Source of the DNA: Sphingopyxis sp. H050 | Lineage (GTDB): Bacteria > Pseudomonadota > Alphaproteobacteria > Sphingomonadales > Sphingomonadaceae | Length of the DNA: 64,000 nucleotides | Assembly (NCBI RefSeq): GCF_001468265.1 | Contig: NZ_LNRZ01000003.1 | Span: 248,001 to 312,000 of the forward strand | Direction: 5' to 3' | Shown here: piece after piece, positions 438 through 23,804 of the stretch | How the letters are laid out: the number at the start of each line of letters is the position of its first letter | Numbering within the stretch: position 1 is the stretch's first letter | The notes under the pieces: generated by a model | The model's database searches: none | The model's input: only the letters and a program-made list of their open reading frames with translations | What the model was told of the DNA's origin: nothing | Translations under genes and position numbers: made by a program

Positions 438-1309
438 GCCGCGCGCACCAGCGGCAGCGGGTGACCGCCGACGTCGGGGCGAAAGGCGAATAACGCCCCC
501 GCGAGCGGTTGCGCCGCGCGCTCCTCCGCCGACATCTCCTGATGCGCCGAGGTTGCATAGAGCGTCGCCAGATCGGGGCCCCCGAACGCCAGCTTGGTGA
601 TGTTCGCGGTCGGAAAGTCGACCTTCGCAATCTCTTCGCCCGCCGGGTTGAAACAGCGCGCCGCCCAGCCCGCATAACAGCCGACCCAGACATTGCCCGC
701 TGCGTCGGTGATCGACCCGTCGGGGTGCCCCATGCCGTCGCCGAAGGTCACGAACGGCCGCAACGCACCGGGCAGTCCATCCGGCCCGATCGGGGCGGCC
801 CGGATTGTTCCGGCGAGCGTATCGGTGAAATAGATCGTCGCGCCGTCGGGGGCGATGGCGGGGCCGTTGGTGATCGCGATCCCGCTGGGCCCCGCCTGCT
901 CGACCTGTCCCGCCGCCAGCCGATAGAAATTGCCGGTTTCGGCCTCGCACGCATTGTCCATCGACCCGAACCACACGGCGCCCGTTGCATCGGTACAGGC
1001 GTCGTTGAGGCGATTGCCGGGCCGATCGGCCTCGACCGCCAGCCAGGCCGTGAATTCCCCGCTGGCCGGATCGAACCAGTGGAGCCCGCCCTGCAGTCCG
1101 CACAGCAGCCGCCCGTCGTCCGCCGGCAGCGCCCAGCCGATTTCGCCCGGCGCGGACCACTGGTCCAGCGCGAGCGATGCGGGGTCGAAGCGCAGGAGCC
1201 GCTTCTGCTTGATATCGACGAACCACAGGCACTGGCGCGCCGCGTCCCACACCGGCCCCTCGCCCAGCGACGTCGACGGCAAGGCGACCGGTTCGGGCGT
1301 CATCGTCAT
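434..1309 (-). CDS. xylC: SMP-30/gluconolactonase family xylonolactonase (XylC-like)
   Basis: A 291-residue SMP-30/regucalcin-type six-bladed propeller. It hydrolyses a sugar lactone, here most likely D-xylonolactone to D-xylonate, the second Weimberg step. Visible family blocks are LGEGPVWD near the N terminus (metal-binding Glu), RLNDACTD, ITNGPAIAPDG and HPDGSITDAAG, which carry the usual Asn/Asp metal ligands. The whole sequence recalls Caulobacter XylC. I start it at ATG 1309 (MTMTPEP) because this overlaps the xylB stop by ATGA; a longer reading frame upstream only shadows xylB. It is followed, again with a 4-bp overlap, by the acetylesterase. Arabinonolactone is a possible alternative substrate. 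Confidence 0.88.
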   Translation of the reverse strand: MTMTPEPVALPSTSLGEGPVWDAARQCLWFVDIKQKRLLRFDPASLALDQWSAPGEIGWALPADDGRLLCGLQGGLHWFDPASGEFTAWLAVEADRPGNRLNDACTDATGAVWFGSMDNACEAETGNFYRLAAGQVEQAGPSGIAITNGPAIAPDGATIYFTDTLAGTIRAAPIGPDGLPGALRPFVTFGDGMGHPDGSITDAAGNVWVGCYAGWAARCFNPAGEEIAKVDFPTANITKLAFGGPDLATLYATSAHQEMSAEERAAQPLAGALFAFRPDVGGHPLPLVRAA

Positions 1310-2103
1310 CAGCGCCAGCCCGCGTCGACCCAATAGTCGTGGCCGGTGCACATGCGCGCGTCGTCGGAGGCGAGGAACAGCGCCATCGCCGCGACATCGG
1401 CGGGCTGAACGCGCGCCTTCAGGCATTGCGCGGCGATGATCTCGGCCTCGCCCTCGGGCGTGTACCATTTGGCCTGGCGCGGGGTTTCGACATTGCCGGG
1501 GATGATCGTGTTGACGCGGATATTGTCGGCGCCCAGCTCACGCGCCATCGAGCGCGTCATCCCCTCGATGGCGGCTTTTGCGGTCTGGTAAAGCACCAGA
1601 TCGGGCAGCGCGAGGTGCCAGCTGATCGATCCGAAATTGACGATCGATCCGCCGCCCGCCGCCTTCATGCCCGGGATGACCGCCTGCGCAGCGAAAAACA
1701 GATGCCGCAGATTGACCGCGATCCGCTCGTCCCAATAGGCGGGGGTGACGTCGCTTATCGCGTGGCGGTCATCGTTCGCCGCATTGTTGAGCAGGATGTC
1801 GAAGCTGCCGAGTTCGTCGGCGAGCATGGCGATATTGCCGCCCAGGCTGTCGAGATCGGTGAGATCGCAGCGGGCAAATCGCGGGGGCGACGCGGCATCG
1901 ACCGACAGGCGGCGCGCCAGCGCTTCGCCGGCCTCGACCTGCCTGTCGAGGAAGGCCACATGCGCGCCCTGCGCGGCAAAGCCGCTGACCAGCGCCTCGC
2001 CGATCCCGCTCGCGCCGCCGGTGACCAGCACGCGCTTGCCGATGAGACTGGGGTATTTCGCCGCCGCTTTCGGATCGTGTGTCGTTCGAGTCAGCACGCT
2101 CAA
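1309..2103 (-). CDS. xylB: NAD(P)-dependent short-chain D-xylose 1-dehydrogenase (XylB-like)
   Basis: A 264-residue classical short-chain dehydrogenase. TGGASGIG (residues 28-35) is the nucleotide-binding loop, NNAAND follows near residue 106, and the catalytic Ser (GSISWHL) and YQTAK pair are present. Stretches such as DDRHAISDVTPAYWDERI and KWYTPEGEAEIIAAQCLK are very like Caulobacter XylB, which oxidises D-xylose to xylonolactone. The name follows Caulobacter usage; E. coli xylB (xylulokinase) is unrelated. The start appears to be TTG at 2103, overlapping the xylA stop as TTGA, which suggests coupled translation; GTG two codons in is the alternative. L-arabinose may also be a substrate. 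Confidence 0.9.
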   Translation of the reverse strand: MSVLTRTTHDPKAAAKYPSLIGKRVLVTGGASGIGEALVSGFAAQGAHVAFLDRQVEAGEALARRLSVDAASPPRFARCDLTDLDSLGGNIAMLADELGSFDILLNNAANDDRHAISDVTPAYWDERIAVNLRHLFFAAQAVIPGMKAAGGGSIVNFGSISWHLALPDLVLYQTAKAAIEGMTRSMARELGADNIRVNTIIPGNVETPRQAKWYTPEGEAEIIAAQCLKARVQPADVAAMALFLASDDARMCTGHDYWVDAGWR

Positions 2104-3539
2104 TCCCCCGTGTAGACCGTCTTGATCTGCGTATAAAATTCGACCGCCGCAAACCCCTGCTCGCGCGCACCATAGCTCGACTTGCGCGTCCCGCCGAATG
2201 GCACATGATAATCGACCCCGGCGGTCGGCAGATTGACCATCACCATGCCGGCGCGGACATGCTTGCGGAAATGGCGGGCGTGCTTCTGGCTGTTGGTCAC
2301 AATTCCCGAGGACAGCCCGAATTCCCCGGCGTTGGCGAGGTCCAGCGCCGCGTCATAATCCTTGACCCGCACGGTCGAAACCACGGGGCCGAAGACTTCC
2401 TCCTTGTTGATCCGCATGTCGGGATTGGTGTCCGCGATCAGCGTCGGCGTCATATAATAGCCGGGCGTCGCCGCCTTCGCCGGATCGCCCCCGGTGACGC
2501 AACGCCCGCCCTCGTCGACCGCGATCTTCGCATAGCGCAGATTCTGCTCGAACTGCGCCTCGCTCGCCGCGGGACCGACCTGCGTTTCGGGATCGAGCGC
2601 CGCGCCGACGCGCAGCCCCTTGGCCTTTTCGGCGAGCGCGGCGACGAAACGGTCGTGGATCGCATCCTCGACGATCACCCGAGACGATGCGGTGCAGCGC
2701 TGGCCGGTCTGGAAGAAGCCGCCGTCGAGCGCGATCGCCACCGCCTTGTCGAGATCGGCGTCGGCCAGGACGACGAGCGGATTCTTGCCGCCCATCTCGA
2801 GCTGCACCCGCGCCTGCCGCGCCATCGCCGCCATGCCGACCTTGGTGCCAACGCCCTGCGATCCGGTGAAGGAGATGGCATCGACGCCGGGATGGTCGGC
2901 AATCGCCGCGCCGACTTGGCCCTGCCCGAGCACCATGTTGAACACGCCCGGCGGCGCCCCGCATTCCATGATGATGTCGGCGAGCGCGCTCGCAATCGCC
3001 GGGGTTACATTGGCGGGCTTTATCACGACGGTGTTGCCGAACGCGAGCGCCGGCGCCGATTTCCACGCCGGGATCGCGATCGGGAAGTTCCACGGCGTGA
3101 TCAGGCCATAGACGCCGACCGCCTCGCGATAGGTCGCAACGTCGAGCCCCGGCCGCGTCGATTCGAGCGTCTGCCCGTGGCGGCGCAGCGCCTCGCCGCC
3201 GAAATAGCGGAAGATGCGCGCGGCGCGCATCACTTCGCCCATGCCTTCGGCGCGGGTCTTGCCCTCTTCGCGCGCAAGCAGCTCGCCAAGCTCGGCGGCG
3301 CGCGCCATGATCGTCGCCGCGACCTTGTCGAGCAGGTCGGCGCGCACTTCGGGCGAGGCGTTCGCCCAGCCCGGCTGCGCGGCGCGCGCGGCGGCGACCG
3401 CGGCATCGACCGCCGCCGCGTCACCCGCGGGGAACAGCGCGACGACCTCGTCGGTGTTCGACGGGTTCAGGCTTTCCAGCGTCGCTCCCTCGGCGCCGAT
3501 ACGCTCGCCGTTGATCAAATGCCCGAGTTTCAAAGTCAT
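2100..3539 (-). CDS. xylA: 2-oxoglutarate semialdehyde dehydrogenase (XylA-like)
   Basis: A 479-residue aldehyde dehydrogenase of full family length. TPWNFPIAIPAWK is the cofactor-binding block, LEMGGKNP contains the general-base Glu and FQTGQRCTASS the nucleophilic Cys. With xylX, xylB and xylC it fits the last Weimberg step, 2-oxoglutarate semialdehyde to 2-oxoglutarate, feeding the TCA cycle. The name follows Caulobacter usage, not xylose isomerase. ATG 3539 begins the conserved MTLKLGHLINGE; an AAGGAC ribosome site lies about a dozen bases upstream. It lies 16 bp after xylX and overlaps the xylB start. By sequence alone other aldehydes are possible; the assignment rests on context. Confidence 0.88.
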   Translation of the reverse strand: MTLKLGHLINGERIGAEGATLESLNPSNTDEVVALFPAGDAAAVDAAVAAARAAQPGWANASPEVRADLLDKVAATIMARAAELGELLAREEGKTRAEGMGEVMRAARIFRYFGGEALRRHGQTLESTRPGLDVATYREAVGVYGLITPWNFPIAIPAWKSAPALAFGNTVVIKPANVTPAIASALADIIMECGAPPGVFNMVLGQGQVGAAIADHPGVDAISFTGSQGVGTKVGMAAMARQARVQLEMGGKNPLVVLADADLDKAVAIALDGGFFQTGQRCTASSRVIVEDAIHDRFVAALAEKAKGLRVGAALDPETQVGPAASEAQFEQNLRYAKIAVDEGGRCVTGGDPAKAATPGYYMTPTLIADTNPDMRINKEEVFGPVVSTVRVKDYDAALDLANAGEFGLSSGIVTNSQKHARHFRKHVRAGMVMVNLPTAGVDYHVPFGGTRKSSYGAREQGFAAVEFYTQIKTVYTGD

Positions 3540-3555
3540 GGCGTGGGTAAGTCCT

Positions 3556-4695
3556 TCAAATACGATCGATGAGCCCGCGGCTCGCGAGATTGCGGAACAA
3601 TTCGGTGATGCCCATCGTCCACGGCGGCGCATCGCGCGATGTGGTGACGATATTTTCCAGCGCCCCGAGCCACGGCGAGGAAATTGTCACCCGGTCGCCG
3701 ACCTTGTGGGTGAAACCGCCGCCGGGCACGTCGCGGTCCTGCGTCGGCGCAAACAGCGTGCCGAGATAGAGCGCATAGCCATCGGGATAATGATGTTCGC
3801 TGCGCGCCTGCGCCGCGAGGTCGAGCGGGTCGCGGCTGATCTGGCCCATCTGGTTCTTGCCGGTCAGCACATAGCCATCGGCGCCCTCGATCCTGAGGTC
3901 GATCTCGGCGCTGCGCACATCGTCGATCGTGAAACCGCCGTCGAACAGGCGGATGAACGGCCCGAGCGCCGCCGAGGCGTTATTGTCCTTTGCCTTGCCG
4001 AGCAGCAGCGCCGAGCGGCCTTCGAAATCGCGAAGGTTCACGTCGTTGCCCAGCGTCGCCCCGACCGCTTCTCCCGCGCTGTCCATGACCAGCGCGACCT
4101 CGGGCTCGGGGTTGTTCCAGCTCGAATCGGACCGCACCCCGATCGGCGCCCCGGCGCCGACCGACGAGAGCACCGCCGACTTGGTGAAGACCTCGGCATC
4201 GGGGCCGATCGCGACCTCCAGATATTGCGACCACATATCCTCGGCGATCAGCGCCGCCTTGAGCGCGGCCGCCTCGGCCGAGCCGGGGACGACCGCGCGG
4301 ATGCCCTGCCCGATATGCTGTTCCAGCCCAGCGCGGATCGTCGCGGCCTGCGAGGCGTCGCCGCGCGCGCGCTCCTCGATCACGCGCTCGATCGCCGACA
4401 CGGCAAAGGTGACGCCCGCGGCCTTGATGCATTGCAGGTCGATGGGACTGAGCAGGCGCGCGCCGTCGGGCAGCGCCGGCGCCTCGGGATCGAGTGCGGC
4501 GACCGGCCTGCCATGCTCGGGCAGCCATTGGCGGCGCGCGATCGCGGCCGATACGGTCGCCGCGCTGGGGGTCAGGTCGTAAAGCACGCCGCCGTCGATG
4601 AGCACGGGCGTCGGACCCGCGCCGAAATCGACTCGTCCGAGCAGGCGAGCAGACCGCCAATCGGCGGGCAAAACGGGGCCCAACGCAAAACCCAT
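3556..4695 (-). CDS. xylX: 2-keto-3-deoxy-D-xylonate dehydratase, FAH family (XylX-like)
   Basis: A 379-residue fumarylacetoacetate-hydrolase-fold protein. It closely tracks Caulobacter XylX (LQCIKAAGVTFAVS, VIEERARGDA, WSQYLEVAIGPDAE, NDVNLRDFEGRSALLL, FTHKVGDRV). XylX dehydrates 2-keto-3-deoxyxylonate to 2-oxoglutarate semialdehyde. The acidic residues in WNNPEPEV and NDVNLRDFEG match the family's metal site. ATG 4695 is preceded by a strong GGGGAGG site (4703-4712 region, minus strand). This is the first gene of the xyl operon and has a TTGACA-type promoter and a LacI-type palindrome just upstream. The preceding pathway enzyme, xylonate dehydratase, is absent from the window and must lie elsewhere. 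Confidence 0.9.
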   Translation of the reverse strand: MGFALGPVLPADWRSARLLGRVDFGAGPTPVLIDGGVLYDLTPSAATVSAAIARRQWLPEHGRPVAALDPEAPALPDGARLLSPIDLQCIKAAGVTFAVSAIERVIEERARGDASQAATIRAGLEQHIGQGIRAVVPGSAEAAALKAALIAEDMWSQYLEVAIGPDAEVFTKSAVLSSVGAGAPIGVRSDSSWNNPEPEVALVMDSAGEAVGATLGNDVNLRDFEGRSALLLGKAKDNNASAALGPFIRLFDGGFTIDDVRSAEIDLRIEGADGYVLTGKNQMGQISRDPLDLAAQARSEHHYPDGYALYLGTLFAPTQDRDVPGGGFTHKVGDRVTISSPWLGALENIVTTSRDAPPWTMGITELFRNLASRGLIDRI

Positions 4696-4725
4696 TGACC
4701 TGAAACCTCCCCACAGCCATTGTTG

Positions 4726-4739
4726 TGATAGCGCTACCA
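4726..4739. promoter_or_regulatory. LacI-type operator in xylX/GH43 divergent region
   Basis: TGATAGCGCTACCA is a near-perfect 14-bp dyad, differing by one base from the perfect TGGTAGCGCTACCA at 17401-17414. The central CG-containing palindrome is typical of LacI-family regulators, and the motif resembles the one I recall from xylose-inducible Caulobacter promoters bound by XylR. It lies between the divergent xylX and GH43 genes, so one bound repressor could block both. The regulator gene is not in the window. Confidence 0.7.
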
Positions 4740-4763
4740 TCACGCTCTAGGGGGTCGTGTCAA
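4736..4763 (-). promoter_or_regulatory. Putative promoter of the xylX operon
   Basis: On the minus strand TTGACA (4758-4763) is followed after 16 bases by GATGGT (4736-4741). The -35 is perfect and the -10 is weak. The -10 falls inside the operator, which fits repression by blocking polymerase. The -10 position is inferred. Confidence 0.45.
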
Positions 4764-4816
4764 GGTTGGCGATCAGAAAATCCGTCGCCGGGCGGGGCCG
4801 CAGCCTCACCGGACGA

Positions 4817-6529
4817 ATGGAGGGGAGAGGCGCGTTGCGGGGTTGGTGCTATATTGCCTGGGCGGCTTGGACTCTGGCGGCGACGCCCGCCGCGGCCCAA
4901 TCGGACGTGCCGCCCGTCGCAAGCTTCGACTATGTGACCTGTTCGGGCACGCCCGATGCCGAATCGGCGACGGCCGGACCGGGGGATTTCGCCAATCCGG
5001 TGCTGCCCGGTTTCCAGCCCGATCCCTCGATCGTCCGCGTCGGCGACGACTATTATCTGGTCAATTCGACCTTCAGCTGGTTCCCCGGCCTGCCGGTCTA
5101 TCACAGCCGCGACCTTGTCCATTGGCGCCAGATCGGCAACGCCATCGACCGCCCCAGCCAGCTGACGATCGGCAAGGTCGGCGTCACGCGCGGACTGTTC
5201 GCGCCGACGATCAGCCACCACGGCGGGCGCTTTTTTATCGTCAACACCTGCATCGATTGCGGCGGCAATTTCATCCTGGCCGCCGACGATCCCGCCGGAC
5301 CCTGGTCCGATCCGCACTGGCTCGACTTCGGCGGCATCGACCCGTCGCTGTTCGTCGATGATGATGGCAAAGCGTGGATCGCCTATAATGACGCGCCGCC
5401 GGGGCCGCCCGAATATGACGGGCACCGCGCGCTGTGGCTGCAGCAGATCGACCTGGCCACGATGAAGATGGCGCCGACGCGCACCTTGCTGGTCGACAAG
5501 GGCGTGCACGCTGCCGACAAGCCGGTGTGGGCCGAGGGACCGCATATCTACAAGGTCGGGCGCTATTATTATCTGACCGCGGCCGAGGGGGGCACCGCCG
5601 ACCAGCACAGCCAGACGATCTACCGCGCCGAGACGGTCACGGGACCCTATCGCCCCGGGCCGGCCAACCCGATCCTGACCCAGCGCGACTTGCCCGAAGG
5701 TCGGCCCTGGCCGGTGCAGGCGACGGGCCACGCCGATTTCGTCCAGATTGCCGACGGCAGCTGGTGGGCGGTCTTTCTCGCGACGCGCCCCTATGCGGGG
5801 CAGCAGACCAATTTGGGGCGCGAGACCTTCCTGTTGCCGGTGCAATGGAAGGACGGCTGGCCGTTGATCCTGCCCTCCGGCACGCCGATCGCGCCGACCG
5901 GTAAGCGCCCGGCCCTGCCTGCCTTCGCCGGCGACACGCTGGGCCAATGGCGCGACGACTTCGACGATCCGCGCCTGGCGCTCGACTGGATGATGCTCCG
6001 CACCCCGCAGGGTCGCGCCTGGTGGAGCCTGTCGGGGAGCAAGGGCGCGCTGCAGCTGACCGCCCGTCCGGTCGCCGCTGGGTCGCTCGACCAGCCGAGT
6101 TTCGTCGGCAAGCGGCTGCGCCATCACGACGCGGTGTTTGAAACCCGCGTCACCTTTGCGCCCACCGCCACCGGCGACCGCGCGGGGCTGCTCGCGCTCA
6201 CCGACGAGAATCATTTTCTCTTCTTCGGCCGCGAGCGGCTGGCGGGCGGCGACGCGATCGTGCTGCGGCGCCGCGGCGCGGCGACGGAACCCGCCGAGGG
6301 CGTGGTCGTGAAGCAGGCTACGCTCGGCGCCAGGCCAGCCGCCGCGATCGATTTGCGGATCCGCCTGAACCGCGACAAGGCCGCGCTGCAATGGCGCGCC
6401 GCCGGGGCAGCGGATTGGCAGACGCTGGCCGCCGACGTCGATGCGTCGGTGCTTGCCACCGTCGGCGCCGGGCTGTTCACCGGCGCGGTAATCGGCCCGC
6501 ACGCGGCGCGCACGGACGCCCGGCCTTGA
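4817..6529 (+). CDS. GH43 beta-xylosidase / alpha-L-arabinofuranosidase, exported
   Basis: A five-bladed GH43 propeller (about residues 57-350) is followed by a beta-sandwich domain of the kind found C-terminally in GH43 xylosidases. FQPDPSI (Asp near 69) is the general base, GGIDPSLF the pKa-tuning Asp and WAEGPHIYK the general-acid Glu. The N terminus is a signal peptide ending TPAAAQ. The start is uncertain: ATG 4817 is used here, but TTG 4835 has a much better ribosome site (AGGGGAGAGG) and gives an equally good signal peptide; GTG 4757 is also open. It should release xylose or arabinose from oligosaccharides and heads an operon with halogenase, GH3 and cupin genes. Confidence 0.88.
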   Translation: MEGRGALRGWCYIAWAAWTLAATPAAAQSDVPPVASFDYVTCSGTPDAESATAGPGDFANPVLPGFQPDPSIVRVGDDYYLVNSTFSWFPGLPVYHSRDLVHWRQIGNAIDRPSQLTIGKVGVTRGLFAPTISHHGGRFFIVNTCIDCGGNFILAADDPAGPWSDPHWLDFGGIDPSLFVDDDGKAWIAYNDAPPGPPEYDGHRALWLQQIDLATMKMAPTRTLLVDKGVHAADKPVWAEGPHIYKVGRYYYLTAAEGGTADQHSQTIYRAETVTGPYRPGPANPILTQRDLPEGRPWPVQATGHADFVQIADGSWWAVFLATRPYAGQQTNLGRETFLLPVQWKDGWPLILPSGTPIAPTGKRPALPAFAGDTLGQWRDDFDDPRLALDWMMLRTPQGRAWWSLSGSKGALQLTARPVAAGSLDQPSFVGKRLRHHDAVFETRVTFAPTATGDRAGLLALTDENHFLFFGRERLAGGDAIVLRRRGAATEPAEGVVVKQATLGARPAAAIDLRIRLNRDKAALQWRAAGAADWQTLAADVDASVLATVGAGLFTGAVIGPHAARTDARP

Positions 6530-8037
6530 TCCGGCCCGAGCCCGTCCGCGTGGTCATCTTGGGCGGCGGCACCGCCGGCTGGATGACCGCCGCCGCGCTC
6601 GCCAAATTGCTGCCTGGACAGGCCGACATCCATCTCGTCGAATCCGAAGAGATCGGCATCGTCGGGGTCGGCGAGGCGACCTTGCCGCATTTGCGCGAAT
6701 TCATCCGCCGCCTCGGCCTCGACGAGATGGACTTCATGCGCAAGACGCGCGCGACGTTCAAACTCGGCATCGACTTTGTCGATTTCGGTGCGATCGGCGA
6801 GCGTTATATCCATCCCTTCGGCGCCTATGGCACCGACATCGCCGGGGTCGGCTTCCACCATTATTGGCTGCGGATGAAGGCCGCGGGCCGTGTCCCGCCG
6901 ATCTGCGACTTCTCGCTCCCGATCGTCGCGTCGCGCGCGAGGCGCTTTGCGCCGATCCCCGCAGGCGGCGACTTCCTCGATAGCAGCTACAGCTATGCCT
7001 ATCAGTTCGACGCGACCCGCATGGCGCCGATGCTGCGCGCTTTCGCGGAAGCGCACGGCGTGCGGCGCAGCGAGGGCAAGGTCGTCGGCGTCGACCGCGA
7101 CGGGACAAGCGGCGATATCGCCGCGCTGCGCACCGACCGCGACGAGACCATCGCGGGCGATCTGTTTGTCGACTGCTCGGGCTTTCGCGCGCTGCTGATC
7201 GGCGAGGCGCTGGGCTCGCCGTGGGAGGATTGGTCGCAGTGGCTGCCGTGCGACCGCGCCGCGGCCTTGCCGTGCACCGCGCCCGACGGGCCGATCGAGC
7301 CCTATACCCGCGCGACCGCGATGCCCGCCGGCTGGCGCTGGCGCATCCCGCTCCAGCACCGCGTCGGCAACGGCTATGTCTATTCGAGCGCGCATCTGTC
7401 GGACGACGAAGCCTGCGGCGCGATCCTGGGCGCGATCGAGGGCGAGCCGCTCGCCGATCCGCGCGTGCTGCGCTTTCGCGCCGGGCGGCGGACCAAAAGC
7501 TGGGACCGCAATGTCGTCGCGATCGGCCTCGCCAGCGGTTTCCTCGAACCCCTCGAATCGACGAGCATCCACCTCGTGCAACAGGCGGTGACGCGGCTGG
7601 TCGAACTGTTCCCGCAGCGCCGCATCGACGCGTCCGACCGCGACACCTTCAACGCGCTCGTCGACCGTGAATATGACCGCATCCGCGACTTCCTGATCCT
7701 GCACTATCACGCCACGCGGCGCGACGATTCGGATTTCTGGAACCATGTCCGCACGATGGCGGTGCCCGAAACGCTGCAGCGCAAGATGGACCTTTGGCGG
7801 ACGAGCGGGCGCGTCGAGCTCTATACGCAGGGCCTGTTTCTCGAGGCGAGCTGGGTCGCGGTCTATTTGGGCCAGGGGGTCGTGCCTATATCCTATGACC
7901 AGCGCGCCGACACGCCGGCGCCGGACCGTTTGGCGAAGTCGCTCACCGAACTCGATCAGGCGATCCGCCAGCGCGTCGCGGCATGGCCCGACCATGGCGA
8001 CTATCTGCGGCAAGCCGGCGCGTGGGAAGCGGCATGA
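6526..8037 (+). CDS. Flavin-dependent tryptophan halogenase family protein, catalytic motifs intact
   Basis: A 503-residue FADH2-dependent halogenase homologue. It has the flavin-binding GGGTAGW near the N terminus, VGVGEATLP, the catalytic-Lys block ATFKLGI, the family signature WRWRIP and LEPLESTSIH, whose Glu-Ser corresponds to the PrnA active-site pair. All residues needed to make and relay hypohalous acid therefore look present. I start at TTG 6526, which overlaps the GH43 stop as TTGA; the next in-frame GTG (6550) would remove residues before the flavin loop. Halogenase homologues are known in sugar/TonB loci of Caulobacter and Xanthomonas, with the natural substrate mostly unknown. Free tryptophan is not implied. 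Confidence 0.85.
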   Translation: MIRPEPVRVVILGGGTAGWMTAAALAKLLPGQADIHLVESEEIGIVGVGEATLPHLREFIRRLGLDEMDFMRKTRATFKLGIDFVDFGAIGERYIHPFGAYGTDIAGVGFHHYWLRMKAAGRVPPICDFSLPIVASRARRFAPIPAGGDFLDSSYSYAYQFDATRMAPMLRAFAEAHGVRRSEGKVVGVDRDGTSGDIAALRTDRDETIAGDLFVDCSGFRALLIGEALGSPWEDWSQWLPCDRAAALPCTAPDGPIEPYTRATAMPAGWRWRIPLQHRVGNGYVYSSAHLSDDEACGAILGAIEGEPLADPRVLRFRAGRRTKSWDRNVVAIGLASGFLEPLESTSIHLVQQAVTRLVELFPQRRIDASDRDTFNALVDREYDRIRDFLILHYHATRRDDSDFWNHVRTMAVPETLQRKMDLWRTSGRVELYTQGLFLEASWVAVYLGQGVVPISYDQRADTPAPDRLAKSLTELDQAIRQRVAAWPDHGDYLRQAGAWEAA

Positions 8038-9308
8038 GCGGAGCGGCGGGCGTGACGCGGTCGGTGCTGGTCGTCGGCGACGGCGTCGTCGGGCTGGCCG
8101 CCGCGATTGCGCTCCGCCGCGCGCTGCCGGGCGCCGCGGTCCGGCTGGTGCAATTGCCGGGCGACGAGGACAGCTGGCTCAACCGGCTGGGCGCGGCGAG
8201 CCCGATCATCCATCGCTTCCACCGGCAGATCGGGCTCGACCCCCGGCTCTTCGCGCGCCGGACCAACGCCGATCCGGCGTATCTGCGCCACTATGTCCGT
8301 GACGGGCAGCCGGCGGTTCGCGAAGCGAGCACCGCGGCGATCCCCTTTGTCGAGGGCGTGCCGCTGCATCACATCTGGCTGCGCCACCGCCTCGAGGACG
8401 GCGAAGGCGCGCCTGATTTCGCCGCGATGCTGCTCGCGCTGCGCGAAGCGCGCGGCGACGAGGGCGGCTTCGGCCCACGCTTCGACATCGCTGCCTATCA
8501 AGGCCTGCTCGGCGAGATGGCGGCGGCGCTCGATATCGACATCGCGGCGGTGGCCGACGTCACCGTCACGGCGGACAATGGCGCGGTCGCGGGTCTTTCG
8601 GCCGATGGCGGCGCATGGCTGCGCGCGGATCTCTATGTGGACGCCGCCGGTCCGCGCTCGCGCCTGCTCACGGCGCTCGGGGCCGGATGGACCGATTGGT
8701 CCGATTGGCTGCCGAAGCTGTCGCTTTCGATGTCGCCGGACGGCGGCGGCGCGCAGGGCGACGAGCGGCTGGCTTACGAAGGCGGCGGGATCGTCTGGCA
8801 GACCCCCGTTTGGCGCGCCGCGCTCGCCCCCGATGCGACCGCCCGCGGCCCGGGCTGCCTCGGCCGCTGTTGGCTGGGCAACGCCGTCGCCATCGGCGAA
8901 GCCGCCGTGCGCGCGCCGACCGCCGATGGCGTCGGCCTCGGCGTCGCGCTCGAGGATATTTTGCGGCTGATCGCGCTGCTGCCGCGTCCCGACGGTGGCG
9001 GGCAAGAGCAGCGCGAATATGACCGCCGCGCCGCGATCGCCTATCGCGCGCTCGCCGACTGGAGTGGCCTCAGCACAGCGCCGGGCGCCGACGGCCCGCC
9101 GGGCCTCGCCGAAATAGGCGCGGCCTTTGCCGCGCGCGGCCGTGTGGCGATCGACGAGCTCAGCCCGATCCAGCCCGGCGAGTGGCTTGCCCGACTGATG
9201 GCGCTTGGCCCGCCGCCGCGCCGCGTCGATCCGACCGCATGGGCGCTGCCCGACGCCGTCGTCCGTTCCACCATCGCCCGCGCCGCGCCGGCGCGCGTGC
9301 CGACCTGA
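8034..9308 (+). CDS. Degenerate tryptophan-halogenase paralogue, catalytic residues lost
   Basis: A 424-residue relative of the neighbouring halogenase. It keeps a recognisable Rossmann start (VVGDGVVGLAAAIAL), a late FAD-contact block (NAVAIGEAAV) and the DWSDWLPK echo of DWSQWLPCDR. It lacks ATFKLGI with its Lys, lacks WxWxIP (aligned region reads IVWQTPVWR), and has APTADGVGLG where LEPLESTSIH should be. So it probably binds flavin, if at all, without halogenating. The ATG overlaps the preceding stop (ATGA), implying co-translation and perhaps a heteromeric partner role. It is full of ordinary codons and has no stops, so it is not a pseudogene by appearance. Confidence 0.72.
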   Translation: MSGAAGVTRSVLVVGDGVVGLAAAIALRRALPGAAVRLVQLPGDEDSWLNRLGAASPIIHRFHRQIGLDPRLFARRTNADPAYLRHYVRDGQPAVREASTAAIPFVEGVPLHHIWLRHRLEDGEGAPDFAAMLLALREARGDEGGFGPRFDIAAYQGLLGEMAAALDIDIAAVADVTVTADNGAVAGLSADGGAWLRADLYVDAAGPRSRLLTALGAGWTDWSDWLPKLSLSMSPDGGGAQGDERLAYEGGGIVWQTPVWRAALAPDATARGPGCLGRCWLGNAVAIGEAAVRAPTADGVGLGVALEDILRLIALLPRPDGGGQEQREYDRRAAIAYRALADWSGLSTAPGADGPPGLAEIGAAFAARGRVAIDELSPIQPGEWLARLMALGPPPRRVDPTAWALPDAVVRSTIARAAPARVPT

Positions 9309-9328
9309 ATCGCCAAGAGAGGATGATG

Positions 9329-11848
9329 ATGCGCAAAAGTCTATGGCTGATGCCGCTGGTGCTGGGCGCCTGCGCCGCACAGGCCGGGGGCCCGACGCGG
9401 TCGGCGGCGTCCGCCGACGCGGGCAAGCTCCTGCTCGCGCCGGTCCCGCCCGAGGCGACGGCGCATCCCGCGCTCTGGCCCAAGCCGCACTGGCCGCAGC
9501 CGCGCGATGCCGCGACCGAAGCCCGCCTCGCCGCGCTGATCGCGCGAATGACCGTCGAGGAAAAGGTCGGCCAGATCGTGCAGGCCGACATCGGCAGCGT
9601 CACGCCGGAGGAGGCCAAGGCCTATCATCTCGGCTCGATCCTCAACGGCGGCAACAGCGGTCCCGGCCACGACGATCTGGCGCCGCGCGAAAAATGGCTC
9701 GCGCTGGCCGACGCCTTTTATGCGGCCTCGGTCGACACCTCGAACGGCGGCGTCGGCATTCCGATCATCTGGGGCACCGATGCGGTGCATGGTCACAGCA
9801 ACATCGTCGGGGCGACGATTTTCCCGCATAATGTCGGCCTCGGCGCGGCGCGCGATCCCGATCTGATCGAGCGGATCGCCCGCGCGACCGCGCTCGAAAT
9901 CCGCACGACGGGCATGGAATGGACCTTTGCCCCGACCGTCACCGTGCCGCAGGATTATCGCTGGGGCCGCGCCTATGAGGGCTATTCGTCCGACCCGGCG
10001 CTGGTCAGCGAATATGTCGGCCGCATGGTGCAGGGACTCCAGGGTCCGGCGACCGGCAAGGATTTGCTCAAGGGTCCTTATGTCATCGCCTCGACCAAAC
10101 ATTACCTCGCCGATGGCGGCACCGTCGACGGCCGCGATCAGGGCGATGCGCGGATCAGCGAAGAGCAATTGCGCGACATCCACGGCGCGCCTTACGTCCC
10201 CGCGCTCGAACAGGGCGTCGCGACGATCATGGTCAGCTTTTCGGGCTGGAACGGGGTCAAAAACACCGGCAACAAATCGCTGCTCACCGATCTGCTCAAG
10301 GATCATATGGGGTTCGACGGGTTCCTGGTCAGCGACTGGAACGCCCACGGCCAGGTCGCCGGATGCACCAACGCCTCCTGCCCGCAGACGATCAACGCCG
10401 GGCTCGACATGGTGATGGCGCCCGACAGCTGGAAGGCGATGTGGACCTCGCTCGTCGCGCAGGCGAAGGACGGCACGGTGCCGATGGCGCGGATCGACGA
10501 TGCCGTCGCGCGCATCCTGCGCGTCAAGATGCGGCTCGGGCTGTTCGAGGCAGGCAAGCCGTCGAGCCGGCCCTATGCCGGCCAATGGGATTTGCTCGGC
10601 GCGCCCGCGCATCGCGCCATCGCGCGCGAGGCGGTGCGCAAGTCGCTCGTGCTGCTGAAGGATCAGGGCGGGGTGTTGCCGATCAAGCCAGGCAGCCACA
10701 TTCTCGTCGCCGGCGATGCCGCCGACGATATCGCCCGCCAATCGGGCGGGTGGACGCTGACCTGGCAGGGTACGGACGTCACCAACGCCAACTTTCCGGG
10801 CGCCACCTCGATCTGGAAGGGGCTGGACGAGGCCGTAAGGGCCGCCGGCGGCAGCGCCGAATTGGCGCCGGGCGGCGCCTACCGCAAGAAGCCCGACGCC
10901 GCGATCGTGGTGTTCGGTGAAACACCCTATGCCGAATTTCAGGGCGACCTGAAGACGCTCCAGCTCCGCCCCGAGCTTCGCGCGCCGTTCGCGACGATGC
11001 AGAGGTTGAAGGCTGCGGGCATCCCGGTGATCGCGGTGATGATCAGCGGGCGGCCGCTGTTCATGAACCCCGAGCTCAACGTCGCCGACGCCTTCGTCGC
11101 CGCCTGGCTGCCGGGCTCGGAAGGCGGCGGCGTCGCTGATGTTCTAGTCGCCGGCAAGGACGGCAAGCCGCGGTTCGATTTCACCGGCAAGCTGCCGACC
11201 GCCTGGCCCGCCACCGCGCGCGCCGACGGCCCGGTCCTGTTTCCCTTCGGCTATGGGCTGGGCCTGAACGACCGCGCGCCATGGACGACGCTGTCCGAAG
11301 AGCCCGGCGTCGAGACGAGCGACAGCGGCAATGTCTGGTTCGCGCGCGGCATTCCCGCCGCGTCCTGGTCGCTGCGCGTGCTCGACGGCGCGGGCGACAC
11401 GACGCGGATCACCTCGGTCCCCGCCGCGGCGCTCGGCGGGCGCGTGAAGGTCACTGCGACCGACCATGTCGTCCAGGAGGGCGCGCGCCAGTTCGCCATC
11501 GCCGGCGGCCCGGCGACGGTCGAAGTGTCGAGCCACGCCCCGGTCGATCTGTCGCGCGAGAGCAACGGCGACCTGTTGCTGGTCGCGACGATGCGCGTCG
11601 ACCAGCCGCCGGAGCAGCCGGCAACGCTGGCCGTCAATCGCACCCCCATTCCCTTTGCGGCATTTTCCGCCGCAACCGCGGGCCAGTGGCGCAGCTATGG
11701 CGTGCCGCTGAAATGCTTTGCTGCTAAGGGGGCCGACATGACCAGGGTCGAGACGCCTTTTCGCCTGACGACCGACGGCGCGGCACGCTTCAGCCTTGCC
11801 GAGGTGCGGTTGGCGTCGGTGGCGGATGTCATCATCCCCTGCCCATGA
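9329..11848 (+). CDS. GH3 beta-glucosidase / glucan 1,4-beta-glucosidase lipoprotein
   Basis: An 839-residue GH3 enzyme: N-terminal TIM barrel (MTVEEKVGQI through the nucleophile Asp in VSDWNAHG), alpha/beta sandwich (KSLVLLKDQGGVLP) and a C-terminal beta domain of about 200 residues like that of ExoP-type glucan glucohydrolases. It would release glucose (or xylose) from the non-reducing end. Three ATGs occur in a row (9323, 9326, 9329); the last is best spaced from AGAGAGG. The N terminus LVLGACAAQ contains a lipobox, so the protein is likely tethered in the periplasm. It sits 20 bp after the degenerate halogenase and overlaps the cupin gene. Confidence 0.9.
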   Translation: MRKSLWLMPLVLGACAAQAGGPTRSAASADAGKLLLAPVPPEATAHPALWPKPHWPQPRDAATEARLAALIARMTVEEKVGQIVQADIGSVTPEEAKAYHLGSILNGGNSGPGHDDLAPREKWLALADAFYAASVDTSNGGVGIPIIWGTDAVHGHSNIVGATIFPHNVGLGAARDPDLIERIARATALEIRTTGMEWTFAPTVTVPQDYRWGRAYEGYSSDPALVSEYVGRMVQGLQGPATGKDLLKGPYVIASTKHYLADGGTVDGRDQGDARISEEQLRDIHGAPYVPALEQGVATIMVSFSGWNGVKNTGNKSLLTDLLKDHMGFDGFLVSDWNAHGQVAGCTNASCPQTINAGLDMVMAPDSWKAMWTSLVAQAKDGTVPMARIDDAVARILRVKMRLGLFEAGKPSSRPYAGQWDLLGAPAHRAIAREAVRKSLVLLKDQGGVLPIKPGSHILVAGDAADDIARQSGGWTLTWQGTDVTNANFPGATSIWKGLDEAVRAAGGSAELAPGGAYRKKPDAAIVVFGETPYAEFQGDLKTLQLRPELRAPFATMQRLKAAGIPVIAVMISGRPLFMNPELNVADAFVAAWLPGSEGGGVADVLVAGKDGKPRFDFTGKLPTAWPATARADGPVLFPFGYGLGLNDRAPWTTLSEEPGVETSDSGNVWFARGIPAASWSLRVLDGAGDTTRITSVPAAALGGRVKVTATDHVVQEGARQFAIAGGPATVEVSSHAPVDLSRESNGDLLLVATMRVDQPPEQPATLAVNRTPIPFAAFSAATAGQWRSYGVPLKCFAAKGADMTRVETPFRLTTDGAARFSLAEVRLASVADVIIPCP

Positions 11849-12873
11849 AGGACTGGCTCACCCGCGCCGCGCCGGTTGCCGAGGTCGATGCCCGCGACGC
11901 CGAGGCCGCACAGGCGGCGCTGAAGGCGGCGAACGGCCGGCCGCTGGTGTTGCGGGGGCTGACCGCGGACTGGCCGTTGGTCGCGGCGGGACGAGAGGGC
12001 GTCGCGGCGCTGGCAGAGCGGCTGGCCGGCTACGGCCCCGGCGCGCCGATGAATGTCTTCACCGCACCGGCGGGGACGCACGGCCATTATTTCTATCGTG
12101 GCGACATGACCGGTTTCAACTTCCGCACCGAGCAGGCGACGATGCCCGAACTGCTCGACCGGCTGCTGTGGGCGAGCACGCTGGCCGATCCGCCGAGCTT
12201 TTACGCGGGGTCGACCCCGGCGGCGGATTTCATGCCCGGCTTCCTCGCCGATCACCCCTTGCCGGTCGCGGCCCCGGGCGCGATCCCGCGGCTGTGGACC
12301 GGCAATGCCTCGCACATCGCGACCCATTTCGATCAGTCGGACAATATCGCGGTCGTCGTCGCGGGCATCCGCCGCTTTGTGCTGTTTCCGCCCGAACAGG
12401 TCGCGAACCTCTATCTCGGCCCGCTCAACAAGACCCCGGCGGGGCAGCCGGTGAGCATGGTCGCGGTCGACGATCCCGACCTCGCGCGTTACCCGCGCTT
12501 CGCCGAGGCGATGGCCGCGGCAGCGGTCGCGACGCTCGATCCGGGCGATGCGATCTTCATCCCCTCGCTCTGGTGGCACAACATCCGCGCCACCGGTCCG
12601 CTCAACCTGATGGTCAATTATTGGTGCGATGCCGGCGCCGGCAGCTCGCCCTTGCTCGCCTTTGCGCACAGCCTGCTGGCGATCCGCGATCTGCCCGCTG
12701 CCGAACGCGCCGCATGGCGGACATGGTTCGAGCATTTCATCTTCGGCGACGAGGGCGCGGCCGCCGCCGATCATCTGCCGCCGCATGCCCAGGGCGTGCA
12801 GGGCGCTGCGTCGCCCGAGCGCGATGAGACGATCCGCAATTTCGTGCTGCGCGGGCTGATGGGGCCGCGTTAG
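11845..12873 (+). CDS. Cupin_8/JmjC-like Fe(II) 2-oxoglutarate oxygenase
   Basis: A 342-residue cupin-like protein. THFDQSDN supplies an HxD pair and SLWWHNI a later His, the usual Fe(II) triad of JmjC/FIH-type hydroxylases; RPLVLRGL near the N terminus is typical of the family. No signal peptide is seen, so it should act in the cytoplasm. Relatives hydroxylate protein or peptide side chains. It overlaps the GH3 stop (ATGA) and its own stop is convergent with the third halogenase (12870-12873). Cupin_8 and halogenase genes recur together in sugar-utilisation loci; the substrate is unknown. Confidence 0.75.
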   Translation: MKDWLTRAAPVAEVDARDAEAAQAALKAANGRPLVLRGLTADWPLVAAGREGVAALAERLAGYGPGAPMNVFTAPAGTHGHYFYRGDMTGFNFRTEQATMPELLDRLLWASTLADPPSFYAGSTPAADFMPGFLADHPLPVAAPGAIPRLWTGNASHIATHFDQSDNIAVVVAGIRRFVLFPPEQVANLYLGPLNKTPAGQPVSMVAVDDPDLARYPRFAEAMAAAAVATLDPGDAIFIPSLWWHNIRATGPLNLMVNYWCDAGAGSSPLLAFAHSLLAIRDLPAAERAAWRTWFEHFIFGDEGAAAADHLPPHAQGVQGAASPERDETIRNFVLRGLMGPR

Positions 12874-14378
12874 CGCGCCACTAGTCGGGCGATAAAGTCG
12901 GCGTGGCTGGGCATCGCGCGCGCCTGCTGATCGAACACCGACGCGATCCGCTCCATCGCGGCGATGATCCTTGCGTCATCGGTCGCATCGACCAGCGGAT
13001 CATATCCCTCGGGCAGGATATTCTGCCCCAGCATGACCGCCGCCCAGTTGGCGATGCCGAACAGGTCATGGTCGAAGCGGCGGATGCGGCCCTTGGTGCG
13101 GAACAGCTCGATCTTCTGCGCCAGGCTGTCGGGGATCTCCATCGCCGTCCTGTCGCGCCAGAAGGGCGTGTCGCGGCGCGCGGTCGCCTTGTAGTGCAGG
13201 ACGATGAAGTCGCGGACATATTCATATTGATCGATCATCAACCGGTTATATTCGTCGCGCTCGACCGCGCTGAATCGCATATCGGGAAACAGCCAGAACA
13301 GCTTGTTGATCCCGGTCTGGATCAGATGGATGCTCGTCGATTCGAGTGGCTCGATAAACCCGCCCGCCAGGCCGAGCGCGACGACATTGCCCTCCCACAA
13401 TCGCTCGCGAACCCCCGCGGTGAAGCGCAGCGGGCGCGGATCGGCCAGCGGCTCGCCGTCCAAATGGGCGAGCAGGGTCGCGCGCGCCTCGTCATCGCTG
13501 GCATAGGCGCTCCCATAGACGATGCCGTTGCCGGTGCGGTGCTGGAGCGGAATGCGCCATTGCCAGCCGAAACCGTGCGCGGTGGCGCGCGTCGCGGGGA
13601 TCAGCGGATCGACGCGCGCCGACGGCACCGCCATCGCCCGGTCGCACGGCAGCCATTGCGACCAGTCGCGATAGCCGACCCCCATTTCGCGGCCGAGCAG
13701 CAGGCTGACGAAGCCCGAGCAATCGATGAAGAAATCGCCCGCGACCTCGCGTCCGTCGCCGAGGCGCAGCGACGTGACATGCCCGCTTTCCGCGTCGCGA
13801 TCGACGCCTTCGATCCGTCCCTCGATCCGCTCGACCCCGTCCGCTTCGGCCCGGCGGCGCAGGAAGGCGGCGTACAGTGCGGCGTCGAAATGATAGGCCG
13901 CCGCCATCTGGTGCAGGGGCGAGCGCGGGTCGCCGCTCTGCGGGGCATAGCCGCCCTCGCGGACCGCGGCCCCCGTGATGAAATAGTCGGTGAACGGCCG
14001 GATCCGCGGATCGCACCGATGCTTGAGCCAGAACTGGTGAAAGGCGATGCCTTCGAAATTATGCCCGGGGTCGCCGAAGGGGTGGAGGTAGCGCTCGCCG
14101 AGCGCGCCCCAGTCGACGAACTCGATCCCCAGCTTGAAGGTCGCCTGCGTTTCGCGAAGGAACTCGGCCTCGTCGATGCCGAGCATGCGGTTGAAGTCGC
14201 GGATCGGCGGGATCGTCGCCTCGCCGACTCCGACGGTGCCGATCGCGTCGGATTCGACCAGGATGATCCGCCGCTGGCCGTCGTTCAGGAACCGCGCCGC
14301 GGCGGCGGCGGCCATCCAGCCGGCGGTGCCCCCACCGACGATCACGACAGTGCGGATCGGCGCGCCGCCTTCGGTCAT
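12870..14378 (-). CDS. Flavin-dependent tryptophan halogenase family protein (second intact copy)
   Basis: A 502-residue halogenase homologue with VIVGGGTAGW, VGVGEATIP, ATFKLGIEF (catalytic Lys), FGWQWRIP and IEPLESTSIH all intact. It resembles the 6526-8037 protein closely across the body (RDWSQWLPCDRAM, YVRDFIVLHY) but is clearly not identical, so the two are diverged paralogues. ATG 14378 overlaps the aldose-epimerase stop as ATGA, which decides it over the ATG four codons upstream. It is the third gene of the GH5 operon. The substrate cannot be read from sequence. Confidence 0.86.
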   Translation of the reverse strand: MTEGGAPIRTVVIVGGGTAGWMAAAAAARFLNDGQRRIILVESDAIGTVGVGEATIPPIRDFNRMLGIDEAEFLRETQATFKLGIEFVDWGALGERYLHPFGDPGHNFEGIAFHQFWLKHRCDPRIRPFTDYFITGAAVREGGYAPQSGDPRSPLHQMAAAYHFDAALYAAFLRRRAEADGVERIEGRIEGVDRDAESGHVTSLRLGDGREVAGDFFIDCSGFVSLLLGREMGVGYRDWSQWLPCDRAMAVPSARVDPLIPATRATAHGFGWQWRIPLQHRTGNGIVYGSAYASDDEARATLLAHLDGEPLADPRPLRFTAGVRERLWEGNVVALGLAGGFIEPLESTSIHLIQTGINKLFWLFPDMRFSAVERDEYNRLMIDQYEYVRDFIVLHYKATARRDTPFWRDRTAMEIPDSLAQKIELFRTKGRIRRFDHDLFGIANWAAVMLGQNILPEGYDPLVDATDDARIIAAMERIASVFDQQARAMPSHADFIARLVAR

Positions 14379-15259
14379 GTCCGCTCCCATGCATCAAGGA
14401 CAATGCGCGCGCCGATCGTCTCACCGGGCGCGGCGACCGGCATGGGCCGCCCCGCCGCGCCAAGGTTCAGCGCATTGTTGCTGTGTGGCACGGGTTCGAA
14501 GCAGAAGAAATCGGTATCGACCGATGTATAGACCACCGCACATGGCAGGTCGGACTGGATGCGCAGCGCCAGCGGGCGGTCGATCCACCAGATGGTCGCG
14601 CGGCCGTCCCAGCCGTCGTAACAATTGTCGCGTTCGCGGCCCGCGACCGCCCGCCCCGCCGCAAAGTCGCTGCTCGGATCGGGCGTTACGGCGCGCACCG
14701 GCAATTGGTCGGCGCCCGCAAGCCACATCTGTCCCGCGGTGAATTGCAGATGCGCGCCGGCGGCGTCGAAATAGGGATGCATCCCGATCGCCAGCGGCGC
14801 GGTGGCGTCGCTGCGATTGGTGACAGTCAGATCGACCGTCAGCTGCGCAGGCGCCAAGGCGAAGCGCTGCTCGGCGGAGAAGGCCCACGGCCAGTCCGCA
14901 TCGCCATCATGCTCGTATCGCAGCACGGCTTGGTCGGCGCTGCTTTGGGTGACCGTCCACCCGCGCAGCCAGCCGACGCCGTGCAAGGGATGCGCGAAGC
15001 CGGCCTTGTTCGGCGGCAGCCGATGCGCGAGGCCATCCCACAGGAAGCAGCCGTCCGCGATGCGGTTCGAATAGGGAACGAGCGGAAAGCTCGCCATTGC
15101 CAGCGGATTCCAATCCGCCGCCGCGATCCCGCTCTCGTACAGCATCGACTGGTCGCCGATCCGCCACGCCGCAATCGCGCCGCCCGCCTCGGGCACGAGC
15201 ACCAGCCGTGCCGCCCCTGCTGCCAGCGTGCGGGTCGCAAACGGGCTGTCGGCGCTCAT
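14375..15259 (-). CDS. Aldose 1-epimerase (mutarotase) family protein
   Basis: A 294-residue galactose-mutarotase-like beta-sandwich. FPLVPYSNRIADG, HPLHGVGWLRGW (catalytic His), GMHPYFD (second His) and a C-terminal FFCFEPVPHSNNALN block with the catalytic Glu are all present. It interconverts alpha and beta anomers of sugars released by the neighbouring glycosidases, probably glucose or xylose. No signal peptide is seen, so it is cytoplasmic. The ATG at 15259 overlaps the GH5 stop (ATGA) and its stop overlaps the halogenase start, placing it in the middle of a three-gene operon. Confidence 0.88.
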   Translation of the reverse strand: MSADSPFATRTLAAGAARLVLVPEAGGAIAAWRIGDQSMLYESGIAAADWNPLAMASFPLVPYSNRIADGCFLWDGLAHRLPPNKAGFAHPLHGVGWLRGWTVTQSSADQAVLRYEHDGDADWPWAFSAEQRFALAPAQLTVDLTVTNRSDATAPLAIGMHPYFDAAGAHLQFTAGQMWLAGADQLPVRAVTPDPSSDFAAGRAVAGRERDNCYDGWDGRATIWWIDRPLALRIQSDLPCAVVYTSVDTDFFCFEPVPHSNNALNLGAAGRPMPVAAPGETIGARIVLDAWERT

Positions 15260-17399: not shown

Positions 17400-17428
17400 T
17401 TGGTAGCGCTACCAGCCGATGGCGTCAA
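17400..17428 (-). promoter_or_regulatory. Promoter of the GH5 operon
   Basis: On the minus strand TTGACG (17423-17428) and TACCAA (17400-17405) are exactly 17 bases apart, about 50 bases upstream of the GH5 start. The spacer and -10 are occupied by the LacI-type palindrome. Confidence 0.55.
17401..17414. promoter_or_regulatory. Perfect LacI-type operator upstream of GH5 operon
   Basis: TGGTAGCGCTACCA is a perfect 14-bp palindrome lying over the spacer and -10 of the GH5 promoter. It matches the xylX/GH43 operator at 13 of 14 positions, indicating a shared repressor for all three sugar operons. Confidence 0.75.
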
Positions 17429-22812: not shown

Positions 22813-22818
22813 GGGCGC

Positions 22819-23784: not shown

Positions 23785-23804
23785 GAGACATCTCCTTGGA
23801 GAAG

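What the first reader, a model, noticed from the sequence alone, without database searches (positions are those of the whole stretch)
6526..14378. Halogenase-halogenase-cupin cassette inside a polysaccharide locus: candidate modification system
Two intact flavin-dependent halogenase homologues, one degenerate one and a JmjC/cupin-type oxygenase are translationally coupled to glycosidases and appear to share a LacI-type operator. No secondary-metabolite biosynthesis gene is nearby. A plausible reading is that they modify a protein or peptide, for example an outer-membrane TonB receptor or a signal, when sugar is present. Halogenases in such loci are recorded, but I know of no established function for this combination.
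Basis: partly seen in the sequence, partly recalled or inferred. Interest (0 to 1): 0.78.

Follow-up and report, generated by a model that had tools for sequence, protein, structure and literature searches.

The report
Halogenases predicted to tag sugar receptors
A bacterial xylan-use locus carries two intact halogenase genes, a conserved halogenase look-alike that has lost its catalytic residues and an oxygenase-family gene; relatives of these genes travel with one kind of outer-membrane sugar receptor across many bacteria, and they are predicted to chemically tag one tryptophan on the likely outer face of that receptor, which would be a new kind of receptor modification.

Summary
The cassette is real: GH43, TrpH1, a short TrpH-like gene, GH3 and a Cupin_8 gene form one gene row, and TrpH2 closes a convergent GH5-epimerase row. 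Both begin at copies of a palindrome (TGRTAGCGCTACCW) that matches exactly at only five places in the genome, all in this 37-kb cluster; another copy sits between a third TrpH and a TIGR01782 TonB-dependent receptor (TBDT). The 'degenerate' gene is not random decay: it belongs to a look-alike clade that mostly lost the catalytic Lys/Glu and follows an intact TrpH in 37 of 40 cases. In 31 genomes, 51 of 58 PF04820 genes lie within 10 kb of a TIGR01782 TBDT, and 16 of 16 cassette-type Cupin_8 genes lie beside PF04820. Linked TBDTs fall in three clades plus one singleton. Each clade carries an invariant loop tryptophan (126 of 126), against 5 of 92 unlinked TBDTs at those two alignment columns and 3 of 7 further unlinked clade I-like ones. 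Best reading: the halogenases (and perhaps the FIH-like cupin) modify this receptor loop before export. The chemistry is untested. Against it: the tryptophan could simply bind sugar, and one genome keeps it without any halogenase gene.

The parts
4726..4739 (.). LacI-type operator-like palindrome TGATAGCGCTACCA between the leftward pentose-type genes and the GH43-TrpH1 row
   Evidence: exact pattern at 5 places in the genome, all in this cluster
4817..6529 (+). GH43 beta-xylosidase-type enzyme with apparent signal peptide (ORF opens at 4757)
   Evidence: PF04616 306.9 bits, PF17851 122.8 bits; start and signal peptide read by eye
6526..8037 (+). TrpH1, intact flavin-dependent halogenase homologue (group A, precedes the look-alike), TTG start overlapping the GH43 stop
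   Evidence: best-scoring solved structure BrvH 6frl
8034..9308 (+). Short halogenase look-alike: catalytic Lys/Glu missing, WxWxIP broken, predicted fold kept; shortened member of a conserved clade
   Evidence: AF2 pLDDT 88.1, top PDB matches BrvH with TM 0.80-0.81 by query length
9323..11848 (+). GH3 exo-glycosidase
   Evidence: PF00933 249.9 bits, PF18559, PF01915
11845..12873 (+). Cupin_8 (FIH-like) non-haem iron oxygenase homologue; HxD (161-163) and H245 line up with the FIH metal-site motifs
12870..14378 (-). TrpH2, intact flavin-dependent halogenase homologue (group B); ORF opens at 14390, coupled ATG at 14378
14375..15259 (-). Aldose 1-epimerase, coupled to TrpH2 (ATGA overlap)
   Evidence: PF01263 133.8 bits
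15256..17352 (-). GH5 endo-glycanase-type enzyme with apparent signal peptide, first gene of the TrpH2 row
   Evidence: PF00150 148.5 bits; start and signal peptide read by eye
17401..17414 (.). Perfect palindrome TGGTAGCGCTACCA ahead of GH5-epimerase-TrpH2

Best explanation
The cassette is likely a sugar-induced receptor-modification module: the intact halogenases are predicted to halogenate (or possibly hydroxylate) an invariant tryptophan at the likely outer face of the partner TonB-dependent xylan receptor, with the halogenase look-alike and the FIH-like cupin as likely helpers. Steps: (1) shown in sequence: copies of one palindrome, which matches exactly at only five places in the genome, precede the GH43-TrpH1-short-GH3-cupin row, the GH5-epimerase-TrpH2 row, the third TrpH/receptor pair, an MFS-like gene and a second GH3 gene. 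(2) Inferred: sugar relieves a LacI-family repressor, so receptor and enzymes are made together. (3) Inferred: the enzymes show no signal peptide by eye, so they would act in the cytoplasm on the unfolded receptor before export. (4) Inferred: the target is the loop tryptophan (own receptor W565, 'YNWGVLSEQW'). (5) Inferred: the look-alike pairs with the TrpH encoded just before it, perhaps for substrate recognition, and the cupin hydroxylates a nearby residue, perhaps the Asn before the Trp. (6) Speculative: the mark tunes ligand grip, loop stability or exposure to phage and bacteriocins.
For: Linkage: 51 of 58 PF04820 genes in 31 genomes lie within 10 kb of a TIGR01782 TBDT, and 30 TBDTs have a PF04820 match within 500 bp, although only 31 of 144 such TBDTs are linked at all. 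In 196 genomes, all 55 with a clade III receptor match carry PF04820, against 66 of the other 141. Site: the loop Trp is present in 72 of 72 clade III, 41 of 41 clade I and 13 of 13 clade II linked receptors; after reduction at 50% identity 41 of 41, against one W at each of the two columns in 33 unlinked representatives. For clade III it is the only residue of any kind that is at least 95% conserved and at most 5% present in unlinked TBDTs (an Asp, 51 of 52 against 5 of 92, just misses), at about 38% mean identity. An AF2 model places it just past barrel strand 562-580, in the long loop (581-702) before strand 703-722; the turns on the other side are short. Regulation: five exact operator places genome-wide, all in this cluster. 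Enzyme side: BrvH, the best-scoring solved relative of TrpH1, does not accept free Trp, is weak on indole, and has a solvent-open site that its authors compare with the peptide halogenase MibH (PMC5945002, passages). The Cupin_8 protein matches FIH over the metal site. Cassette-type Cupin_8: 16 of 16 lie within 5 kb of PF04820, against 0 of 15 other Cupin_8 matches.
Against: No modified receptor has been observed. The Trp could be a sugar-stacking residue needed by these receptors anyway. Genome G188 keeps a clade I receptor with the Trp but has no PF04820 match at all, although its genus-mate G150 has a listed PF04820 match about 90 bases from its clade I receptor, so recent loss is possible. 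Two more unlinked clade I-like receptors (L240, L241) keep the Trp, in genomes with PF04820 elsewhere. Clades I and II/III use different loops. Independent origins are few (three clades), so residue counts overstate the statistics. In clade II the sequences are close (32 clade-specific residues), so its Trp is not special on its own. The one other linked receptor (L141) has no Trp at either column. The number of conserved Trps does not track halogenase number cleanly, and the Asn-cupin link is weak (p = 0.09). The operator pattern was written after seeing the cluster's sites; at up to one mismatch its backwards control gave more matches than the pattern (12 and 11 against 6 and 6).
Confidence: 0.5

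Rival explanations
1. The halogenases act on a free small aromatic molecule (an indole, a phenolic released from plant polymer, or a signal) that accompanies sugar uptake.
For: BrvH and three Xanthomonas relatives act on indole or indole derivatives in vitro (PMC5945002, PMC7336383, passages). Xylan, unlike starch, can carry ferulate (recalled).
Against: The same linkage holds in a GH13 (starch-type) locus of this genome (GH13 recognised by eye), where no aromatic decoration is expected. BrvH's authors doubt that indole is the natural substrate. No aromatic-metabolism family appeared among the genes of the locus scanned with Pfam (not every ORF was scanned).
Confidence: 0.2
2. The loop tryptophan is a carbohydrate-binding residue and the halogenases modify something else; receptor and halogenases share loci only because both serve sugar use.
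For: Trp commonly stacks on sugars (recalled). G188 keeps the Trp with no halogenase, and two more unlinked clade I-like receptors keep it. The loop is on the likely outer face.
Against: Most unlinked TIGR01782 receptors lack it: 5 of 92 have a W at either column. PF04820 lies within 500 bp of the receptor match in 30 cases.
Confidence: 0.18
3. The enzymes modify the co-encoded secreted glycosidases (GH43, GH3, GH5), not the receptor.
For: Translational coupling to GH43 and GH3 genes, and to the GH5 row through the epimerase, in this window.
Against: In the named loci a receptor hit is found in 69 of 80 stretches, while the glycosidase types that I looked for (GH3, GH43, GH5 queries only) come and go.
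Confidence: 0.07

Closest known systems
BrvH (6frl) and Xcc4156 (6y1w), 'orphan' PF04820 halogenases
   Same: Same subfamily by sequence (468 to 496 bits); catalytic Lys and Glu kept; brvH also lies beside a second halogenase gene.
   Different: Those papers give no native substrate, and 'TonB' does not occur in either main text. Here the neighbourhood, operator and a candidate target residue are given.
Peptide Trp halogenases MibH, SrpI, MppI (lanthipeptide and other RiPP pathways)
   Same: Flavin halogenases acting on ribosomal peptides (Trp for MibH and SrpI); MibH works after other modifications, including proline hydroxylation (PMC12615548, passages).
   Different: RiPP gene clusters with small precursor peptides; here no precursor peptide was noticed (not searched for specifically) and the proposed target is a large outer-membrane protein.
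QhpG, peptidyl-Trp dihydroxylase for CTQ cofactor
   Same: A halogenase-fold flavoprotein that modifies one Trp in a protein (PMC7876137, abstract and passages); weak NCBIfam similarity.
   Different: Far below the QhpG cut-off (33-34 against 240 bits); different partners.
FIH-type asparaginyl hydroxylases
   Same: The Cupin_8 protein aligns over the FIH catalytic core with HxD...H in place.
   Different: 62 bits over about 107 residues only; substrate unknown. Activity of FIH on Asn is recalled.
Xanthomonas/Caulobacter CUT loci and the Caulobacter xylose regulon
   Same: TBDT + inner-membrane transporter + regulator + degradative enzyme; a conserved palindrome upstream of xylose genes (PMC1790865, passages).
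   Different: That paper does not mention halogenases (0 occurrences).

Membership tests
Flavin-dependent Trp halogenase (PF04820) | Pfam model over cut-off across full length | tested here: met
   TrpH1 609 bits, TrpH2 614 bits
Flavin-dependent Trp halogenase (PF04820) | FAD GxGxxG, WxWxIP motif, catalytic Lys and Glu | tested here: met
   TrpH1/TrpH2 keep all; the short gene does not
Flavin-dependent Trp halogenase (PF04820) | Halogenating activity | not testable with these tools
   needs enzyme assay
Halogenase look-alike (short gene) | Halogenase fold kept, catalytic residues lost, conserved as a clade | tested here: met
   fold is a prediction; long-branch attraction could inflate the single clade
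Peptide/protein Trp halogenase (MibH/SrpI-like) | Encoded with its peptide or protein substrate | tested here: inconclusive
   co-encoded TBDT with invariant loop Trp; modification unseen
Peptide/protein Trp halogenase (MibH/SrpI-like) | Site open to large substrates (no long cap loop) | tested here: inconclusive
   TrpH2 aligns without gaps to Xcc4156 over its last 87 aligned residues; openness itself is reported for BrvH
FIH-like 2-oxoglutarate oxygenase | HxD...H metal triad | tested here: met
   H161, D163, H245
FIH-like 2-oxoglutarate oxygenase | Asn hydroxylation of a protein | not testable with these tools
   indirect only: Asn directly before the loop Trp in 20 of 20 clade III loci with a cupin, 38 of 46 without, p = 0.09 (66 of the 72 clade III receptors)
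CUT locus | TBDT, sugar enzymes and LacI regulator under one operator | tested here: met
   no exact operator copy was found before the LacI gene itself, and LacI binding is untested

The most novel reading that the evidence does not exclude
Bacteria brand their outer-membrane sugar receptors: a cytosolic set of flavin halogenases, guided by a dedicated dead halogenase and assisted by an FIH-like hydroxylase, installs a halogen on one loop tryptophan of a TonB-dependent receptor, under the same sugar switch that makes the receptor. This would be the first regulated halogenation of a nutrient receptor and would give the long-orphan BrvH/Xcc-type halogenases a native substrate.
Probability: 0.38. 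Interest if true: 0.93.

Novelty: new variant of a known kind. Interest (0 to 1): 0.76.

Why it matters
Close relatives of these enzymes are common (574 confirmed in one capped scan), and the BrvH and Xcc4156 papers call or leave the native substrate unknown (passages). The linkage, the shared operator and the invariant loop tryptophan turn that open question into a single mass-spectrometry experiment on a named residue. If true, halogenation becomes a receptor post-translational modification, and the conserved catalytically dead partner offers a handle on how protein-level halogenases choose a site, which is useful for protein engineering.

Tried and rejected
Rejected: that the short gene is simply a pseudogene; its relatives form one clade of mostly full-length frames in the same slot after an intact TrpH. 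Rejected: that one column is shared by all three linked receptor clades; the clade I Trp lies in the preceding loop. Tried without clean result: number of loop Trps against number of halogenases (L058 and L059 with one TrpH lack the second Trp, but L078 and L089 keep it); Asn before the Trp against cupin presence (p = 0.09). NCBIfam gave only weak superfamily hits. Paper searches for a TrpH-TBDT link listed nothing on point in the open library held; I judged by listing only, apart from PMC1790865. One search listed two papers with both terms; passages show one has only a table of iron-limited proteins (PMC3377617), and the other muses that an unknown halogenase might take part in virus-host receptor redox (PMC11337851), without the link described here. 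Subscription papers were not searched. Foldseek of the receptor model gave general TBDTs at 9-12% identity among the 50 listed, so the loop could not be matched to a sugar-bound structure.

Rows dropped: one TIGR01782 row below cut-off with an in-frame stop (G010:C48) was left out of the 144; 92 of 113 unlinked TBDTs were fetched; PF04820 sequences with 200 or fewer aligned residues were dropped from the tree (210 kept of 216); PF04820 rows were cut by the tool, so linkage there was checked by genome and by the 40 stretches; searches scored at most 3, 4 and 7 candidates per genome, so copy numbers there are lower bounds.
Full report
Observation. The window is G000:C3:248001-312000 of a 4.36-Mb genome. 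Pfam gives GH43 (4757-6529), Trp_halogenase (6526-8037, 609 bits), a weak Trp_halogenase (ORF 7983-9308, likely start 8034, 86.6 bits), GH3 (9323-11848) and Cupin_8 (11845-12873) on the plus strand; Trp_halogenase (12870-14390, 614 bits) and aldose epimerase on the minus strand, headed by GH5. Junction sequences show 4-base stop/start overlaps at five gene pairs; for TrpH2 this is the ATG at 14378. Short/GH3 has a gap. TrpH1, TrpH2 and five other full-length genomic paralogues keep the catalytic Lys and Glu.

One regulon. The palindrome TGGTAGCGCTACCA has two matches in the window with up to two mismatches, at 4726 and 17401 (0.08 expected in shuffles). Widened to TGRTAGCGCTACCW after I had seen the cluster's sites, it matches exactly at five places in the genome, all in C3:228783-265414: before an MFS-like gene (by eye), between a third TrpH (230291-231796) and a TBDT (231973-235278), before a second GH3 gene, and before the two window rows. 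With one mismatch allowed one more place appears, on another contig; the tool's control (pattern read backwards) gave 12 forward and 11 reverse matches against 6 and 6 for the pattern. The number of sites therefore means little; their clustering is what counts. A LacI-family gene lies at C3:242204-243304, with no copy found in the 131 bases around its start. Binding is inferred.

Own genome. PF04820 has 8 matches in four clusters. Three of the seven TIGR01782 TBDTs over cut-off adjoin PF04820. Two other clusters are TBDT-TrpH-GH13-type enzymes-TrpH (GH13 by eye) and TBDT-TrpH-SapC-Cupin_8-TrpH-LacI.

Linkage elsewhere. Of 80 named loci (the best 80 of 574), 69 hold a TBDT hit in the fetched stretch, and several of the 11 others are short contigs. 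Over 31 genomes, 51 of 58 PF04820 genes lie within 10 kb of a TIGR01782 TBDT. The seven others are the three of this window, 19-26 kb from their receptor but under its operator, and four in G006, G012, G014 and G017. Cupin_8 matches split: 16 of 16 scoring at least 196 bits lie within 5 kb of PF04820, 0 of 15 of the rest. In 196 genomes, clade III receptor profile: 55 genomes, all PF04820-positive; clade I profile (a few intermediates included): 83 of 85; PF04820 overall 121 of 196 (Fisher p about 1e-14 and 1e-22, ignoring relatedness).

The look-alike. Of 41 genes scored as degenerate (one, L060_6228, is probably a cut intact gene), few keep the Lys (6), the Glu (9) or the second motif Trp (9), but all keep the FAD-side Asp (41) ('degenerate' was defined by loss of K, E or W, so the contrast with intact genes is partly by construction). 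In a tree they form a clade of 40 including the window's short gene (support 0.97). In named loci 37 of 40 scored genes have an intact PF04820 gene as the next one upstream on the strand, and in all 37 the two open frames overlap or lie 4 bases apart. Long-branch attraction may help the grouping. The window's copy is shortened (424 aa) yet models well (pLDDT 88.1, pTM 0.90; top matches BrvH and Xcc4156). A search of 31 genomes (its own and 30 relatives) with it gave matches in 16, best outside its own 63.6 bits, so it has no close orthologue there.

The receptor residue. I aligned 94 TBDTs from halogenase loci (3 own, 28 from relatives, 63 from named loci) with 92 unlinked ones (92 of 113). 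Linked TBDTs form three clades (I 28, II 13, III 52) and one singleton, each next to unlinked branches. Residues at least 90% conserved in both II and III and at most 5% in unlinked: one, a Trp at column 1731. In clade III it is the only residue at least 95% conserved and at most 5% in unlinked; an Asp (51 of 52, 5 of 92 unlinked) just misses. Against all other TBDTs, clade II included, clade III has one such residue, an Asp. Clade I has its own Trp (column 1622) among 11 such residues, clade II 32. Control clades of unlinked receptors gave 1 to 81 such residues against the other unlinked ones, with one Trp among them (u11, a close set). Fetching 40 more stretches: clade III 20 of 20 with Trp and with a TrpH in the stretch; clade I linked 13 of 13 with Trp; clade I-like unlinked 3 of 8 with Trp (L234, L240, L241) and 5 without, counting L210 from the first set. 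L234 comes from a genome with no PF04820 match at all, the clearest result against my reading. After reduction at 50% identity: linked 23 of 23, 16 of 16 and 2 of 2; unlinked 1 and 1 of 33 at the two columns. In the AF2 model of a clade III receptor (L041, pLDDT 80.5) the Trp (585) sits just past strand 562-580, at the start of the 581-702 loop, on the side that I infer to be outside because the turns on the other side are short.

Enzyme precedents. The BrvH paper (passages) reports no acceptance of Trp, low activity on indole, and an open site resembling MibH. A 2025 review (passages) describes MibH, SrpI and MppI as peptide halogenases. QhpG hydroxylates a protein Trp (abstract and passages). 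The cupin aligns to FIH over the metal site. None of this shows what the window's enzymes do.

Verdict. The association and the candidate site are shown; the modification is inferred. The result is a strong, directly testable hypothesis for a large orphan enzyme group.

Noticed in passing
window 18112-23826 (-): CHAT-domain protein, ShlB/FhaC-type two-partner secretion transporter and a collagen-like GAT/GPA repeat protein (read by eye) lie together on one strand: a possible secreted protease or adhesion unit.
   Followed up: no
window 434-4743 (-): Lactonase (SGL), SDR, aldehyde dehydrogenase and a fourth gene (no Pfam hit) look like an oxidative pentose pathway, divergent from the GH43 row and next to operator 4726-4739.
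   Followed up: partly
L013:6836-14780: TBDT-TrpH-SapC-Cupin_8-TrpH set (for SapC). The TBDT-TrpH-(gap)-Cupin_8-TrpH pattern recurs with near-constant spacing in 12 of 31 genomes; SapC was not searched for in the others, and its role here is unknown.
   Followed up: partly
window 25249-27603 (-): PAS-GGDEF-EAL protein.
   Followed up: no
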